From NCBI GenBank assembly GCA_016650435.1, contig JAENVT010000304.1:1-5072 (forward strand): a stretch of 5,072 nucleotides of DNA, read 5' to 3'. A program made the translations under genes and the position numbers. Source of the DNA: Ilumatobacteraceae bacterium (GTDB lineage: Bacteria; Actinomycetota; Acidimicrobiia; Acidimicrobiales; Ilumatobacteraceae). Positions 1-5,072 of the stretch are shown here, one piece after another (position 1 is the stretch's first letter; the number at the start of each line of letters is the position of its first letter). The notes under the pieces were generated by a model that worked only from the letters and a program-made list of their open reading frames with translations, ran no database searches and had not been told where the DNA came from.

Positions 1-620
1 TCCTCGGCCACGAGGCGTGGGACTGGGACGGCACGCCCCGCGACAAGTATCCGCTGCTGCTCAACTTCCATCCGCTGGTGATCTATCGCCACCAGGTGCT
101 CAAGCAGGCCGATGTGGTACTCGCCATGTTCCTGCGCGGCGACGAGTTCGCGCCCGACGTGCAACGCCGCAACTTCGACTACTACGACCCGATCAGCACC
201 GGCGATTCGTCACTGTCGGCCTGCGTGCAATCGATCATGGCCGCTGAGGTGGGGCACGCCGACCTGGCATTCCAGTACTTCCGGGAGTCGTTGTACCTCG
301 ACATCGCCAACACCCACGGCAACACAGTCGACGGCGCCCACCTCGCCAACGTCGGCGGAGTGTGGGCATGCCTGGTGCACGGGTTCGCCGGTGTCCGCGA
401 CTCGGGAACCCACGTCCGGATCGCGCCGCGCCTCCCCGCCGGCTGGCAGGGCATGCGCTTCAACCTGCACCGGCGCGGCGGCGACATCGCGATTGCGGTC
501 GATCCCACCGGCGCCACGGTCACCGTGGAGTCAGGCGAGCCGGTGCCCATCCTCGCCGACGGAGTGATCACTGAGATCGCGACGGGCGGCTCCCTGCGGG
601 TCGTCGGCAGAGCACTCTAA
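1..620 (+). CDS. Glycoside hydrolase family 65 protein, C-terminal part (5' end outside window)
   Basis: The reading frame is open from base 3 to the TAA at 618-620, giving 205 residues; GH65 proteins are usually about 750-800 residues, so only the last quarter is here. Family hallmarks seen (fragment numbering): KQAD at 34-37, TGDSSLS at 66-72 and DGAHLANVGG at 110-119. These match the end of the (alpha/alpha)6 barrel, where GH65 phosphorylases contact substrate and phosphate through a Ser in the DSS motif and a His near HLA..GG. From about residue 134 the chain turns into a small beta-rich C-terminal domain. GH65 members act on alpha-linked disaccharides such as maltose, trehalose, kojibiose or nigerose, mostly by phosphorolysis. 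The general acid Glu lies upstream of the window, so neither substrate nor mechanism can be read here. The protein is probably cytoplasmic. The gene converges on the minus-strand pair and shows no functional tie to it. The family call is secure; substrate is unknown. Confidence 0.9.
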   Translation, partial: LGHEAWDWDGTPRDKYPLLLNFHPLVIYRHQVLKQADVVLAMFLRGDEFAPDVQRRNFDYYDPISTGDSSLSACVQSIMAAEVGHADLAFQYFRESLYLDIANTHGNTVDGAHLANVGGVWACLVHGFAGVRDSGTHVRIAPRLPAGWQGMRFNLHRRGGDIAIAVDPTGATVTVESGEPVPILADGVITEIATGGSLRVVGRAL

Positions 621-707: not shown

Positions 708-2804
708 TTAGCTGGACGTCGGGATGGTGATCGTGTTGGAGTCCAACGTCACGGCCCCGTTGCGGGCGATCAGGCGCCCGACGATGGCGACACCGGTGGT
801 CGCAGTGATCGAGATGTTGGCAATCACGGTTCCGGCGAACTGTGTCGTTGTGCCGAACGTCGCCGAGGAGCCCACCTGCCAGAACACGTTGCCCGGTTGG
901 GCGCCGTTGGCGAGTACGACCCGGCTTGCTGATGCCGTGACCAGCGTGCTCGCCGCCTTGAACACGAACAAGGCGTTGGGATCGCCTCCGGCATCGAGGA
1001 TCACCGTCCCGGTCAACTCGATCGTGCCACCCTGGTAAACGCCCTGCGTGATCGTGCGCCCGCCGAGTTCGACGCCGGGGAGCGGTGAGGCGGCCAGACC
1101 GTCGAGGAAGAGCTGCGCGGCCGCAGCAGCGATGTGGGCCGCGGCGGGAGCCGCCGGCGAGGAGGCGAAGATCTGGCCGGAGACCTGTGCCGGCGTCAGC
1201 CCGGTGTTCCCGCTGATCGTTGTGCCGACGTGACCGGTGATCGACGTCGGTCCGGTCGAAGTGACCGCGGCGTAGCCGAGCACCGCGAAGTCAGCGGCGA
1301 CGCCCAGGTCGACGAGCGGAACGATCGGCAGCGTCACGACAGGCACCGAGGGGAACGTCACGATCGGCGCTGACGGAACGGTCGCGACCGGCGCTGACGG
1401 AATGGTCGCGACCGGCGCTGCCGGACCGGGAGGCGCCACAACCGGCGTGGACGTGGGCGGCGTCGCCCGAACAAATGTGGGCATGACCGGCACTGCCGGG
1501 CCGGGCGGCGACGACGTTGTGGACGGCACCATCGGCGAGTTCGTGTCGGCGGGCGGCGGCGACTGATCGAGGACAGGGTCGTCGCGTCTCGTGGCCGTCA
1601 CCGACGTCGCGACGATTCGCCCGGGTGACCAGACTTCAGCTATCACGCCGAGGGGTTCGAGAACAGAGTCGTAGTCGGCATGAGAGGCGACCGAAGCGCG
1701 ACCCGATGCGGCGGGGATGCCCTCCATGCCGATCGTGGGTGCGCCGACAACGGTGAGAACTGCGGCGATGGTTGCGGCGTGACTGCCGATAGCGGTCGAG
1801 AGGACCGACGTCGGGAACAGCGGGAGCTGCGAGACCCACGACAGGGGTCCGATCAGCAGTCGTAGTCTTCCGATCGAGATGTTCAGGAACGCCCGCACGA
1901 TTGTCTCGTCGAACTGCCCGCCTGCACACCGAGCCAGTTCTGTGCGTGCTTCGGCCGCCGAGACGGGTGTCTTGTACGAACGCGCTGACGTCATCACATC
2001 GAACACGTCGGCGACGGCGACGATCCGCGCCGCGAGCGCTATGTCGAGGCCTGCCAGACCCGACGGGTAGCCACGTCCGTCCCAGCGCTCGTGATGCTCC
2101 CACACGGCGCGGGCCGAATCGCCGAGCCACGGGATCAGAGGTGTCACCATGCCGCGGCCGTACTCCGGGTGCAGGCACACTTCCTCGTACTCCTCGGCGG
2201 TAAGTGTCCCCGGTTTGTTCAAGATCGCCGCCGGGATCAGCAGTTTGCCGACGTCGTGCAGCAGCCCGGCCCACTGCAGCCGGTCGAGCTCGGTCTCGCC
2301 GAGCCCCATCTCCTCGCCGATCATCCGGCTGTACGCACGCACCCGTTCGGAGTGTCCTCGAGTGGTGCGGTCATGGACGCTGAGCGCGGCGACGAGATCG
2401 AGCACACGCTCGGCAGCATCAGCGGGCGTGTTGCCGAGCTCGCCCCGGCGCGCTTCGGCGATGCGGTCGCGCAGTTGGCCCGTCGAGCCGTTGCGCAACG
2501 CGACTCGAAATCGTGGAGGCGCCCGGTCGGGAAACGTGAGGCTCAGCGCCAGCAACGTGGCCAACGGCGCGAGGCGACGGGCGAGACGCTCGGTGGCGAG
2601 CAGCACCGCCGTCGCTGCGGCGGCAATCAGCAGCCAACGGACAACAGCGTCGGCAATTGTCGGTGGCGCAGCGGCGAGTGAGCTCAGCATCCACGCAATG
2701 CCGAACGAGGCGGCAACTGGCACAGCGATTATGCCGACGCGCAGCGCCCGGCTGGCCACCGGACGCCCCGACCACTGCCTGGATGATTCGGGGTCCCGAG
2801 GCAT
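708..2804 (-). CDS. Membrane HD-GYP phosphohydrolase fused to extracellular DUF3494 (ice-binding-like) domain
   Basis: The 698-residue protein has these parts, numbered from the ATG at 2804. Two hydrophobic helices lie at about 23-45 and 52-71, followed by Arg-rich ERLARR. An HD-GYP domain covers about 130-315 with all expected metal ligands: H151, H183-D184 (LLHDVGK), H212, H237-H238, D266, plus the signature HHERWDGRGYP. A third long hydrophobic helix is at 333-359. A Pro/Thr/Ser/Val linker runs about 407-500, and a DUF3494 domain 501-692 starts ADFAVLGYAAVTSTGPTSI and contains GDPNALFVFK, NVFWQVGSSA and ARNGAV. HD-GYP enzymes hydrolyse cyclic dinucleotides (c-di-GMP, some 3'3'-cGAMP); DUF3494 proteins are secreted beta-solenoids, several of which bind ice. 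The helix count places HD-GYP in the cytoplasm and DUF3494 outside. Activity and ligand are inferred. It follows the flippase-like gene by 32 nt, probably as one operon. A GTG five codons upstream (2819) is an alternative start. Confidence 0.88.
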   Translation of the reverse strand: MPRDPESSRQWSGRPVASRALRVGIIAVPVAASFGIAWMLSSLAAAPPTIADAVVRWLLIAAAATAVLLATERLARRLAPLATLLALSLTFPDRAPPRFRVALRNGSTGQLRDRIAEARRGELGNTPADAAERVLDLVAALSVHDRTTRGHSERVRAYSRMIGEEMGLGETELDRLQWAGLLHDVGKLLIPAAILNKPGTLTAEEYEEVCLHPEYGRGMVTPLIPWLGDSARAVWEHHERWDGRGYPSGLAGLDIALAARIVAVADVFDVMTSARSYKTPVSAAEARTELARCAGGQFDETIVRAFLNISIGRLRLLIGPLSWVSQLPLFPTSVLSTAIGSHAATIAAVLTVVGAPTIGMEGIPAASGRASVASHADYDSVLEPLGVIAEVWSPGRIVATSVTATRRDDPVLDQSPPPADTNSPMVPSTTSSPPGPAVPVMPTFVRATPPTSTPVVAPPGPAAPVATIPSAPVATVPSAPIVTFPSVPVVTLPIVPLVDLGVAADFAVLGYAAVTSTGPTSITGHVGTTISGNTGLTPAQVSGQIFASSPAAPAAAHIAAAAAQLFLDGLAASPLPGVELGGRTITQGVYQGGTIELTGTVILDAGGDPNALFVFKAASTLVTASASRVVLANGAQPGNVFWQVGSSATFGTTTQFAGTVIANISITATTGVAIVGRLIARNGAVTLDSNTITIPTSS
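1317..1412 (-). repeat. Four tandem 24-bp units encoding 8-residue linker repeats
   Basis: Within the minus-strand HD-GYP/DUF3494 gene, four consecutive 24-bp units encode VATIPSAP, VATVPSAP, IVTFPSVP and VVTLPIVP. The two units nearest the 5' side of the gene (1389-1412 and 1365-1388) are almost identical in DNA; the other two have diverged. The units make a Pro-every-4 extended stalk directly before the DUF3494 domain. An earlier pair, PPGPAVPVMPT and PPGPAAPVATI, suggests an older, longer-period duplication in the same linker. This pattern suits a cell-wall-spanning spacer whose length can change by slippage or recombination. Confidence 0.75.
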
Positions 2805-2836: not shown

Positions 2837-4144
2837 TCAAGCCCGCGACTTGAGCTCGGCGGCCTGTGTGGATGGTGCGACAGGTTGGCGAACGCGGGTC
2901 AGGTTGCCGCGGCGGCCGGTGGCGACGAGCTTGTTCTGGCGCATACTCGCGTAGGTGACCCAGCCGATTCCCAACACGAGCCAACAAGACACGGCACGGT
3001 AGAGCAAGGCGGCGACGATGGCCGCCGACATCGGTACACCGCTCTGCACCAGCGCGACGGTGATCGCTGACTCCACGATGCCGATGCCAGCCGGAGTGAA
3101 GCTCAGCGATGCTGCTCCGAGTGTGGCTCCGTAGACGAGCACGAGGTGTGTCCACGGCACGGGAACGCCCAGTGCTCGCACACAGACGGCGAGGCAAGCG
3201 AGATCGGCTACCCAGTTAATCACCGAGTAGGCAGCGGCTGTGGCTCCGGCGCGCCAACCGAGTCGGAACCCGGCGATCCGCTCGAACGCTCGCGAGACGA
3301 CTGCCCCGTCGAGGCCATGAGGACGTTGTCTGATGAGGTGCAACCTCACCACAACCCGCTGGGTGACGTGACAGGCGTGGGTGCGAACCATCGGGGACCT
3401 GACCGACATCAACAGCACGGCGAGCGGGATGATGCCGAGGAGTACAGCGACGGCTCCGACGATGGACGTTGGGCCGTCGCCGGTGACGACGGCGCCGGCA
3501 CCGAGCACGAGCGCGAGGACGGTGGTCGAGATGATGCCGGAAGTCGCCAGCGCCCAGCCTGCCGACGGCGCATCGGAGCCGCGCTTCTTCAATTGCACGA
3601 ACGTGAACGCGGTCCCTGCCGTGCTGCCGGCCAAGGGCAGCGTGACCGACACCGCGTTCCCGGCGAGTGTGATTGCGGCCATCGAGCGGACTGGCAACGA
3701 CACGCCGCTAGCGCGCAGGACGCGGCGTTGTTGGAGTGCAGCGGTCAGCATCGAGACCGCAGCAAGAGCGAGCGCCGGCACGACCCACGCTCCGTTCAAC
3801 CGCTCGACGTCGCGACTGAACGAAGCGGCCATGTGCGTCCACCGGATCGTCGCGATTGCAACCACGGCCGCGATCGATGTGACGACCGCGATGACAAGCG
3901 CACGTTGCGACACCTCGCGCCGTGGAACCTGCGACAACGCGACCGGCTCCGCGAGTACCGGTTGCGTCGCGGGTGCCGTGCCCGGGAGATCCACGTGACT
4001 GCTGCGTGAGGGTGCAAGTGGTGCCGCGTGCTGTTGCGCCTGATGCGGGCATCGGCTGAATCCAACATGTCCTGCGGACCGCTGCGCGCTGCACCCCCGA
4101 GACGCGTCGGCTTGTTGCGGTGTCGGCGTATCGAGATCCGTCAT
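2837..4144 (-). CDS. LPG_synthase_TM / UPF0104 family polytopic membrane protein (flippase-like)
   Basis: The 435-residue protein starts at ATG 4144. Its first 75 or so residues are polar and low in order, rich in Pro, Ala, Gln and Ser with two Cys, and have no signal peptide. Hydrophobic helices then follow at about 81-101, 119-138, 154-170, 196-221, 227-248, 299-323, 331-350 and 372-399 (start-based numbering). Family marks are the GNAVSVTLPLAGSTAGTAF block with the following LKKRG, and FTPAGIGIVESAI near 349-361, matching the P(G/A)G(I/L)G..E motif of PF03706. This family includes the membrane flippase half of MprF and many stand-alone relatives thought to move lipids or polyprenyl-linked sugars across the membrane. 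No lysyl-transferase domain is present, so this is not full MprF. The cargo is unknown. It is the first gene of a probable operon with the HD-GYP/DUF3494 gene. The family call is firm; the transport role is inferred. Confidence 0.85.
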   Translation of the reverse strand: MTDLDTPTPQQADASRGCSAQRSAGHVGFSRCPHQAQQHAAPLAPSRSSHVDLPGTAPATQPVLAEPVALSQVPRREVSQRALVIAVVTSIAAVVAIATIRWTHMAASFSRDVERLNGAWVVPALALAAVSMLTAALQQRRVLRASGVSLPVRSMAAITLAGNAVSVTLPLAGSTAGTAFTFVQLKKRGSDAPSAGWALATSGIISTTVLALVLGAGAVVTGDGPTSIVGAVAVLLGIIPLAVLLMSVRSPMVRTHACHVTQRVVVRLHLIRQRPHGLDGAVVSRAFERIAGFRLGWRAGATAAAYSVINWVADLACLAVCVRALGVPVPWTHLVLVYGATLGAASLSFTPAGIGIVESAITVALVQSGVPMSAAIVAALLYRAVSCWLVLGIGWVTYASMRQNKLVATGRRGNLTRVRQPVAPSTQAAELKSRA

Positions 4145-4440: not shown

Positions 4441-4683
4441 ATGGACGAGATCGAGATCGTTCACCGGATCGGCAAGCTCGTCGAGGACGAGCATGCGCTG
4501 GAGCGTGCTCACGCTGGGTCACCTCCGTCCGAGGAAGATGTGGCCCACCTCCGCGAGCTCGAGGTCGCGCTCGATCAGTGTTGGGATCTGTTGCGTCAAC
4601 GGCGCGCACGTCGCGACGCGGGCCTGAATCCCAACGATGCCGACGTTCGCCCCGTACGCGTCGTCGAGGGCTATCAGCAGTGA
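4441..4683 (+). CDS. DUF2630 family small protein
   Basis: This is an 80-residue soluble, highly charged protein, starting at ATG 4441 behind AAAGGA. It matches the DUF2630 (PF10944) pattern along its whole length: an N-terminal helix with IVHRIGKLVEDEH, an acidic spacer PPSEED, a second helix ending in LDQCWDLLRQRRARR at 44-58, and the C-terminal tail VRPVRVVEGYQQ. Its length is usual for the family. The two heptad-like charged helices suggest a small helical hairpin or coiled coil, possibly dimeric. The family has no known biochemical function as far as I know, and it occurs mainly in Actinomycetota. There is no signal peptide or membrane segment. The next gene on the same strand, a ferredoxin, begins 70 nt downstream, so the two could share a transcript. 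The family call is confident; the role is unknown. Confidence 0.9.
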   Translation: MDEIEIVHRIGKLVEDEHALERAHAGSPPSEEDVAHLRELEVALDQCWDLLRQRRARRDAGLNPNDADVRPVRVVEGYQQ

Positions 4684-4753: not shown

Positions 4754-5072
4754 GTGGCCGGTATCGCGATCATCACCGAGGCCTGTATCGGTGTGAAGGA
4801 TCGGGCGTGCGTCGACGTGTGCCCTGTCCAGTGCATCTACGAGTTCGACCCGCAGAAGAACATCCTGTTCTCCGAGGAGCAGGCCGGCAGCGGGGTCATC
4901 GAGACCACGCATACGCCGAACCCCGACTCGGTCGCGATCTTCGGCGACACCTTGCTGTATGTGAACCTCGACGAGTGCACGTCATGCACCGCGTGCTACC
5001 AGCCCGACGTTTGTCCGGTCGGCGCGATCTACTCCGACGAACACGTGCCCAACGGCTCGGCCTCGACAGCCA
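4754..5072 (+). CDS. Two-cluster (probable 3Fe-4S/4Fe-4S) ferredoxin, 3' end outside window
   Basis: The frame from GTG 4754 is open to the window edge, giving 106 residues. The first motif is C11-x7-C19-x3-C23-P-x3-C27 (CIGVKDRACVDVCPVQCIY). The second is C75-x2-C78-x2-C81-x5-C87-P. By analogy with Azotobacter ferredoxin I, C11, C19 and C87 would hold a 3Fe-4S cluster, since the position three after C11 is Val and not Cys. C23 with C75, C78 and C81 would hold a 4Fe-4S cluster. This is a small cytoplasmic electron carrier; partners are unknown. Two features are odd: 47 residues separate C27 from C75, against 14 in Azotobacter ferredoxin I, and the last spacer is 5 residues where 3 is usual. 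The insert (about 31-70) contains an acidic stretch and THTPNPDS. It may extend the domain or shield a cluster. The family call is firm; cluster types are inferred. Confidence 0.9.
   Translation, partial: MAGIAIITEACIGVKDRACVDVCPVQCIYEFDPQKNILFSEEQAGSGVIETTHTPNPDSVAIFGDTLLYVNLDECTSCTACYQPDVCPVGAIYSDEHVPNGSASTA

What the first reader, a model, noticed from the sequence alone, without database searches (positions are those of the whole stretch)
708..2804. HD-GYP phosphodiesterase domain joined across the membrane to a DUF3494 ice-binding-like domain
One chain carries a full HD-GYP active site, a membrane helix, a proline-rich stalk and a DUF3494 beta-solenoid. DUF3494 proteins are normally secreted or surface-anchored and bind ice or act as adhesins; HD-GYP domains are cytoplasmic and cut cyclic dinucleotides. 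The helix count (two before HD-GYP, one after) places each domain on its expected side. This suggests a one-component surface sensor: ligand binding outside could change second-messenger breakdown inside, without a kinase or separate receptor. I recall related actinobacterial HD-GYP proteins with other extracellular C-termini, so the front half may be a reusable module that takes different outer domains. That recollection needs checking.
Basis: partly seen in the sequence, partly recalled or inferred. Interest (0 to 1): 0.75.

Follow-up and report, generated by a model that had tools for sequence, protein, structure and literature searches.

The report
Membrane signalling enzyme with ice-binding-like head
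A bacterial membrane protein joins an inner enzyme that should destroy a signalling molecule to an outer ice-binding-like head, and its front half turns up in many related bacteria carrying quite different, often adhesion-type outer parts.

Summary
Window 708-2804(-) is one 698-aa ORF: two membrane helices, intact HD-GYP domain, third helix, Pro-rich stalk, DUF3494 head. It is no assembly join: 28 of 120 listed proteins, the window's included, carry both domains. The topology is supported: 14 of 27 fusions have a head cysteine pair 59 residues apart, 13 have neither cysteine; 95 complete outer halves of the wider family have 0 (31), even (63) or odd (1) cysteine counts. Metal ligands are kept in 233-234 of 234 modules. 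DUF3494 sits on two module branches (one clade rejected, p-AU 4e-5); the head tree does not settle two captures. That outer binding controls the enzyme is inferred. No held paper pairs HD-GYP with DUF3494.

The parts
708..2804 (-). whole gene, 698 aa, ATG start at 2804, stop at 708-710
   Evidence: homologues of similar length and start
2682..2738 (-). membrane helix 1 (residues 23-41)
   Evidence: hydropathy; helix 15-43 in the model
2592..2648 (-). membrane helix 2 (residues 53-71); uncharged loop (residues 44-50) before it
   Evidence: hydropathy; helix 50-76 in the model
1899..2387 (-). HD-GYP phosphodiesterase domain (Pfam HD_5, residues 140-302)
   Evidence: E 1.1e-36; relatives 4r8z, 4mcw, 5z7c
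2253..2258 (-). His183-Asp184, the HD metal-ligand pair
   Evidence: conserved in 234 of 234 family modules
2064..2072 (-). Gly245-Tyr246-Pro247 (GYP motif)
   Evidence: conserved in 234 of 234 family modules
1749..1805 (-). membrane helix 3 (residues 334-352)
   Evidence: hydropathy; helix 332-354 in the model (low pLDDT there)
1314..1724 (-). Pro/Val/Thr/Ser-rich stalk (residues 361-497), no predicted structure
   Evidence: length varies between homologues
711..1313 (-). DUF3494 ice-binding-like head (residues 498-698; Pfam PF11999 at 508-693)
   Evidence: (E 3e-48), model, Foldseek
2837..4144 (-). neighbour: LPG_synthase_TM (PF03706) flippase-like gene ending 32 bp upstream of ATG 2804, same strand, perhaps one transcript; link to the module not found in the held loci

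Best explanation
A one-component transmembrane receptor of a phosphodiesterase type. The HD-GYP domain, held under the membrane by helices 1-2 and 3, most likely hydrolyses a cyclic dinucleotide (c-di-GMP or 3'3'-cGAMP) or the product pGpG. Helix 3 leads out to a Pro-rich stalk, long enough if extended to cross an actinobacterial wall (about 137 residues x 0.31 nm = about 42 nm; the rise per residue is recalled), which presents a DUF3494 head to the outside. When the head holds ice or another surface, the event is passed through stalk and helix 3 to the HD-GYP domain and changes messenger breakdown. It is one member of a family with a conserved inner half and swapped outer halves. Shown here: chain, domains, topology (by several indirect signs), intact active-site residues, swapping across the family. 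Inferred: enzymatic activity, substrate, outer ligand, coupling.
For: Both domains in one chain in 28 of 120 listed proteins, the window's included. Active-site conservation although the outer half varies: H151, H183, D184, H212, H237, H238 and GYP in 234 of 234 modules, D266 in 233 (that script stopped with an error after these counts were printed). Cysteine evidence that the outer half is outside, and K+R fraction 0.110 in modules against 0.041 in tails, n=118. Many outer halves are adhesion or carbohydrate-binding types. Solved HD-GYP relatives match by sequence and fold, among them 9rbz, titled c-di-GMP-bound.
Against: No activity, ligand or coupling data. The region between helix 3 and the head has no predicted structure, so no signal path is visible. 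The fusion itself was found in none of the 221 or 397 genomes searched, only in proteins of the large collection. Gene context gives no functional link. A hydrophobic stretch at 486-504 would, if it crossed the membrane, put the head inside; relatives do not keep it.
Confidence: 0.58

Rival explanations
1. Surface adhesin first: the front half mainly anchors and displays the outer domain, and signalling, if any, runs inside-out (nucleotide state of the HD-GYP domain changes exposure or retention of the head), as recalled for LapD.
For: Many outer halves are typical adhesin material: Ig/cadherin repeats, CshA and Rib repeats, lectin, CBM.
Against: LapD-type receptors have degenerate catalytic domains (recalled); here the active site is kept in 233-234 of 234 modules, which selection for mere anchoring would not be expected to keep. 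None of the five window proteins scanned with Pfam is a protease or adhesin-release partner.
Confidence: 0.22
2. Two functions side by side: an active phosphodiesterase and a displayed ice/surface-binding domain that share a chain and location but are not coupled.
For: Long stretch without predicted structure between the two; outer halves change type often on the module tree.
Against: 95 of 95 complete members of the panel keep an outer half of at least 103 aa, whereas the 8 other HD-GYP frames in the held loci that match only the HD-GYP part of the profile end 11 to 51 residues after it.
Confidence: 0.15
3. Annotation or assembly artefact (two genes fused by a lost stop or a chimeric contig).
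For: No whole genome is held for the window, so its own assembly could not be inspected.
Against: 28 of 120 listed proteins, the window's included, have the same fusion; the other rows of A1 are 64-86% identical in clade A and 42-43% in clade B.
Confidence: 0.02

Closest known systems
HD-GYP phosphodiesterases (PA4781 4r8z, PmGH 4mcw, V-cGAP3 5z7c, DvhD 9rbz)
   Same: Fold and HD...GYP motif, metal-ligand residues
   Different: None of these solved proteins has this three-helix membrane frame with an outer domain (judged from call titles and recall). PmGH has Glu where the window has Thr147 (alignment; that this Glu binds the third metal is recalled)
DUF3494 / type 1 ice-binding proteins (6eio, 7bwx, 6bg8, 5uyt)
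   Same: Head sequence and fold
   Different: The stand-alone relatives from the order mostly show a leader-like N-terminus (judged by eye, no signal-peptide program run), i.e. look secreted; here the head is tethered to a cytoplasmic enzyme. Of 116 DUF3494 architectures reported from Arctic samples (PMC9957290, section 3.2 and passages read), the main text has no match for 'HD domain' or 'cyclic'
Streptomyces HdgA (6TM-HD-GYP; PMC6205966, passages read)
   Same: Actinobacterial membrane HD-GYP protein, predicted PDE
   Different: Six helices and no outer domain in its table entry
LapD-type transmembrane c-di-GMP receptors (recalled)
   Same: Cyclic-dinucleotide domain joined across the membrane to an outer part
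   Different: Proteobacterial, degenerate GGDEF-EAL rather than intact HD-GYP, periplasmic part between two helices rather than a C-terminal stalk and head (all recalled)

Membership tests
HD-GYP phosphodiesterase | HD domain with metal-binding His/Asp set and GYP motif | tested here: met
HD-GYP phosphodiesterase | HD-GYP fold | tested here: met
   model m0e3c9756ce9b, Foldseek 4r8z_B E 5.8e-10, TMt 0.74
HD-GYP phosphodiesterase | hydrolysis of c-di-GMP, cGAMP or pGpG | not testable with these tools
   needs an enzyme assay
DUF3494 / PF11999 ice-binding-like | full-length profile match above curated cut-off | tested here: met
   164.7 bits against cut-off 28.7, profile 1-208
DUF3494 / PF11999 ice-binding-like | discontinuous beta-solenoid fold | tested here: met
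   (TMt 0.86, 0.91, 0.92 for the three best solved matches, all ice-binding proteins by title)
DUF3494 / PF11999 ice-binding-like | ice binding | not testable with these tools
   DUF3494 is described as occurring in ice-binding and in substrate-binding proteins (PMC12337378 passages)
one-component transmembrane receptor | input domain outside, output domain in the cytoplasm, one chain | tested here: met
   indirect but concordant: helix count, cysteine pairing and parity, charge bias
one-component transmembrane receptor | input changes output | not testable with these tools
   needs activity measurement with and without ligand
LapD-type inside-out receptor | catalytically degenerate nucleotide-binding domain | tested here: not met
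   active-site residues kept in 233-234 of 234 modules; the defining feature is recalled

The most novel reading that the evidence does not exclude
An order-wide family of phosphodiesterase 'touch receptors' in Acidimicrobiia-type actinobacteria: one conserved transmembrane HD-GYP engine onto which evolution has repeatedly set different grips (cadherin/Ig chains up to about 2,100 aa, lectins, pentapeptide fibres, an undescribed 2-Cys head and, on two separate module branches, an ice-binding head), so that contact with a surface, including ice, directly lowers or raises an intracellular cyclic dinucleotide.
Probability: 0.35. Interest if true: 0.85.

Novelty: new variant of a known kind. Interest (0 to 1): 0.62.

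Why it matters
How bacteria turn contact with a surface into a change of cyclic-dinucleotide level is an open question, studied mostly in proteobacteria with many-part systems (recalled). Here sensor-like head, stalk, membrane helix and enzyme are one polypeptide, in a lineage for which my searches found no paper on such receptors. The swapped heads form a natural domain-exchange experiment, and a carrier of the module whose record is not marked as a MAG exists (Acidiferrimicrobium sp. IK, L008).

Tried and rejected
Own-genome searches failed because no genome is held for the window. The fusion was sought in 221 genomes of the family (5 candidates scored per genome) and 397 of the order (2 scored per genome) of an Ilumatobacteraceae genome: no listed match spans both halves. 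It was also sought in the 2-genome family of G305 for clade B. 57 of the 397 have a DUF3494 match; by my reading, 9 of these 57 also have the module, each on another contig. So the fusion's own gene neighbourhood could not be compared. The neighbour genes of the window (flippase, GH65, DUF2630, ferredoxin) have no tblastn match at E 1e-5 in the loci held, but among module loci only L001-L008 have flanks of 2-8 kb, the rest about 1.5 kb or less, so an operon role of the flippase is neither shown nor excluded.

Assembly artefact: rejected. Cytoplasmic head: rejected. Two independent captures of DUF3494: the module tree supports it (AU p 4e-5; a long-branch warning beside clade B is printed), but in the head tree clades A and B lie together with support 79 only, so a single head passed between modules remains possible. 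The first AlphaFold run of the whole chain gave a good head but a poor HD-GYP domain; the second, module only, was better. The commonest unnamed outer domain (A5) has no credible solved relative; the best hit, E 0.0038, is a 46-residue partial match.

Counts of outer-type changes on the tree (32 over all labels) are inflated by truncated tails, by crude motif labels and by a mixed 'other' class; they show repeated change, not a rate. Rows dropped: by my count 16 of the 120 module matches listed were never fetched (mostly short, broken or second copies, and one 2171-aa frame, G453:C63); 3 of 121 fetched modules were cut by contig ends within 20 residues of the module; 23 of the 118 remaining tails run off their locus and were left out of the parity count; the module trees use 73 of 234 modules, 14 of them from clade A; P0025, P0026 and P0029 were left out.

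Full report
What is there. The ORF 708-2804(-) encodes 698 aa without interruption. Pfam places HD_5 at 140-302 (E 1.1e-36) and Ice_binding PF11999 at 508-693 (E 3e-48, whole profile). Hydropathy gives helices at 23-41, 53-71 and 334-352; the N-terminal 22 residues carry 5 K/R against 2 D/E, and the loop 44-50 has no charge, so N-in, loop out, HD-GYP in, C-terminus out. A further stretch, 486-504, is as hydrophobic as a helix in the window (1.82) but contains three prolines and scores -0.50 to 1.56 in the 26 other fusion proteins; I do not count it. Residues 361-497 hold 29 prolines and have no predicted structure. The head models with pLDDT above 90 in most blocks from residue 501 on and matches solved ice-binding proteins (6eio E 9e-16; 7bwx TMt 0.92). 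The module, modelled with 56 sequences (mean pLDDT 78.5), matches HD-GYP structures (4r8z, E 5.8e-10, TMt 0.74).

Is it a real protein type? In the 5.8-billion-protein search (1862 proteins at E <= 0.001 of 7996 scored; 120 listed), 28 of 120, the window included, carry both PF13487 and PF11999. P0027 and P0058 are listed with PF11999 only, but their first residues lie inside the HD-GYP domain. Clade A (P0002-P0024 in alignment A1) is 64-86% identical to the window, clade B (P0042, P0048, P0079) 42-43%. Two clade A proteins (P0018, P0020) are named by their sources as from an Ilumatobacteraceae bacterium. So the fusion is widespread enough to be kept, not a one-off.

Which side is the head on? 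In A1 a cysteine in the head (638 in P0003) and one at the C-terminus are both present in 14 of 27 rows, always 59 residues apart, and both absent in the other 13, the window among them; no row has one of the two alone. P0011 has one other cysteine in its outer half. Paired gain or loss is what a disulphide would give. Over the wider family: of 95 complete outer halves from genome loci 31 have no cysteine, 63 have an even number (2 to 26) and 1 has an odd number (L045, whose end looks out of frame), whereas module cysteines are odd in 51 and even above zero in 40 of 118. The same count on 88 outer halves among P0025-P0120, which include fragments and frame-shifted chains, is less clean: 29 zero, 50 even, 9 odd. 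The binomial p of 7e-18 in that call is for the 95 and ignores kinship. Lysine plus arginine fall from 0.110 in modules to 0.041 in tails (n=118). Together with the helix count this puts outer halves in an oxidising compartment outside the membrane.

The front half as a module. A profile of residues 18-362 separates two kinds of HD-GYP frames in the loci held: 121 different modules, E 2e-95 or better, nearly all matching from the first helix on, and 8 ordinary HD-GYP frames that match only profile positions of about 90-297, E 1e-39 to 3e-45; the two split frames of L009 fall between. In 397 genomes drawn evenly from the order of an Ilumatobacteraceae genome (G004; the order name, Acidimicrobiales, is recalled), 85 have a match at E <= 1e-45 with two candidates scored per genome; 3 of these (G282, G286, G352) match only through DUF3494, leaving 82 with the module, 3 of them (G373, G429, G563) without the first helices in the match. 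In 296 genomes of the phylum, by my reading 18 have it (E 6e-65 or better), then come HD-GYP-only matches from 6.5e-49 on; one weaker match, G645:C33 (query 24-333, E 2.6e-42), spans the helices and blurs the border. Which orders these 18 belong to is not told. I fetched 104 of the 120 module matches listed (by my count) besides others. Of 121 different modules 3 were cut off by contig ends; 118 outer halves were studied, 95 of them complete: 103 to 2127 aa, median 320. No complete member lacks an outer half.

What the outer halves are. Pfam on 103 shorter and 15 longer outer halves, members matched: Big_9 21 and 14, Cadherin_5 16 and 14, pentapeptide 8 of 103, lamin tail domain 6 and 8, He_PIG 4 and 4, CshA repeat 3 and 4, Rib long 2 and 1, C-type lectin 2 of 103, CBM_6 1, CBM_35 1, fn3 1 (the lists are capped at 25 families). 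PF11999 is in neither list. A further class, commonest in close relatives (52 of 88 tails among P0025-P0120; 13 of 118 in the genome panel), follows a Thr/Pro-rich stalk, has the motif NYDTDRD and two invariant cysteines in 9 aligned members, and has no credible solved relative; one search lists no Pfam domain beyond the HD ones for these proteins. Others look like low-complexity stalks only (by eye). The nearest sisters of clade A, P0030-P0032, end without a head; P0030 and P0031 have a similar Val/Thr/Pro stalk, as if a head had been set on, or lost from, an existing stalk, though a truncated gene call would look the same. Single genomes carry modules with different outer halves: G004 has three, of frames 438 (runs off its contig), 746 and 2248 aa.

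Enzyme side. Across 234 modules (116 from proteins, 118 from loci) H151, H183, D184, H212, H237, H238, G245, Y246 and P247 are invariant, D266 is kept in 233, D145 in 231, K187 in 229. At the place of the PmGH glutamate that, as I recall, binds the third metal, the window has Thr147 (alignment) and A1 has T 18, S 4, R 3, I 2, so a two-metal site is more likely; this does not fix the substrate. The closest solved relatives by sequence are a 3'3'-cGAMP-specific enzyme (5z7c), PA4781 (4r8z) and PmGH (4mcw). GGDEF proteins, possible makers of the substrate, are present in 322 of 397 genomes, in all 82 with the module and 240 of 315 without (read; Fisher p 5e-9). Genome size and completeness are uncontrolled confounders.

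One origin or two for the ice-binding fusion? In a FastTree of all 234 modules clade A (23 fusions plus P0025, P0026, P0029) and clade B (3) each have support 1.0 and their common ancestor holds 180 rows. On the 73-row tree clade A (14 rows used) is a clade (99) next to P0030-P0032 and clade B stands elsewhere; holding A and B together costs 53 log-likelihood units, AU p 4e-5. The program warns of a long branch beside clade B. On the head tree (69 rows: 27 A, 3 B, 39 stand-alone) A and B lie together with support 79, not significant. So two module branches carry DUF3494, but whether the head was taken up twice from stand-alone genes or once and passed on is open. DUF3494 occurs in 57 of 397 genomes, so donors are at hand; no genome searched had the fusion.

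Literature. Full-text searches: HD-GYP with DUF3494, 0 papers; with ice-binding, 0; with Ilumatobacter, 0; with Acidimicrobi-, 2, on leptospirilli by title; with cadherin, 6, none on such fusions by title and abstract start; with extracellular domain, transmembrane and Actinobacteria, 1, on agriculture; phosphodiesterase, c-di-GMP, ectodomain, adhesin and one-component together, 0; HD-GYP with c-di-GMP, Actinobacteria and domain architecture, 12 listed, of which I read passages of PMC6205966 (Streptomyces HdgA is 6TM-HD-GYP). PMC9957290 (passages and section 3.2) reports 116 architectures among 3869 prokaryotic ice-binding proteins, Acidimicrobiales among the orders carrying them; its main text has no match for 'HD domain', 'cyclic' or 'signal transduction' and its one 'phosphodiesterase' is a neighbouring pfam01663 gene. 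PMC12337378 and PMC5014055 were read in passages. Subscription papers and preprints are outside these searches.

How it probably works, and how sure. I take it as a receptor whose output is messenger breakdown (0.58). The main rival is an adhesin whose inner half is an anchor or works inside-out (0.22); strict conservation of the active site under exchange of the outer half speaks against that. Uncoupled co-display stands at 0.15. Ice as ligand is a guess from the family name: the solved relatives are titled ice-binding or antifreeze proteins, but the domain is also described in substrate-binding proteins.

Verdict. Observation confirmed; interpretation supported in structure and evolution, untested in function. 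New variant of a known kind; the unexpected part is the scale of outer-half exchange on a fixed transmembrane HD-GYP module.

Noticed in passing
window 2837-4144(-): LPG_synthase_TM (PF03706) flippase-like gene directly upstream on the same strand, 32 bp before the ATG; possible co-transcription, link not found in held loci.
   Followed up: partly
window 3-620(+): C-terminal end of a glycoside hydrolase family 65 protein (PF03632 and PF03633).
   Followed up: no
window 4441-4683(+) and 4754-5071(+): DUF2630 gene, then a ferredoxin (FdxA-like) cut by the window end; FdxA_Actino scores 57 bits against a cut-off of 125.
   Followed up: no
L021:790-1884(-), L003:3046-4176(+), L004:9060-10085(+) and others in A5: Undescribed outer domain with NYDTDRD motif and two invariant cysteines, the commonest outer half among close relatives, no credible solved relative.
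   Followed up: partly
P0025, P0026, P0029: Members of the clade A module branch listed without DUF3494, whose tails seem to leave the fusion frame; decayed copies or sequencing errors.
   Followed up: no
L009 (Ferrithrix thermotolerans DSM 19514), frames at 1873 and 2267: The module lies in two overlapping frames, so the gene looks broken in this record.
   Followed up: no
L008 and L014 (Acidiferrimicrobium sp. IK, genome G008): One genome, not marked as a MAG, with an intact module frame (713 aa) and a separate DUF3494 gene.
   Followed up: no
G502:C72 (L102, L060) and G385:C193 (L130, L052): Two module genes on one contig, about 14-15 kb apart; L060 and L052 were flagged pentapeptide-like, their partners were not.
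   Followed up: no
G129 and others: Some genomes hold several separate DUF3494 matches (three listed for G129), so the domain has also multiplied outside the fusion.
   Followed up: no
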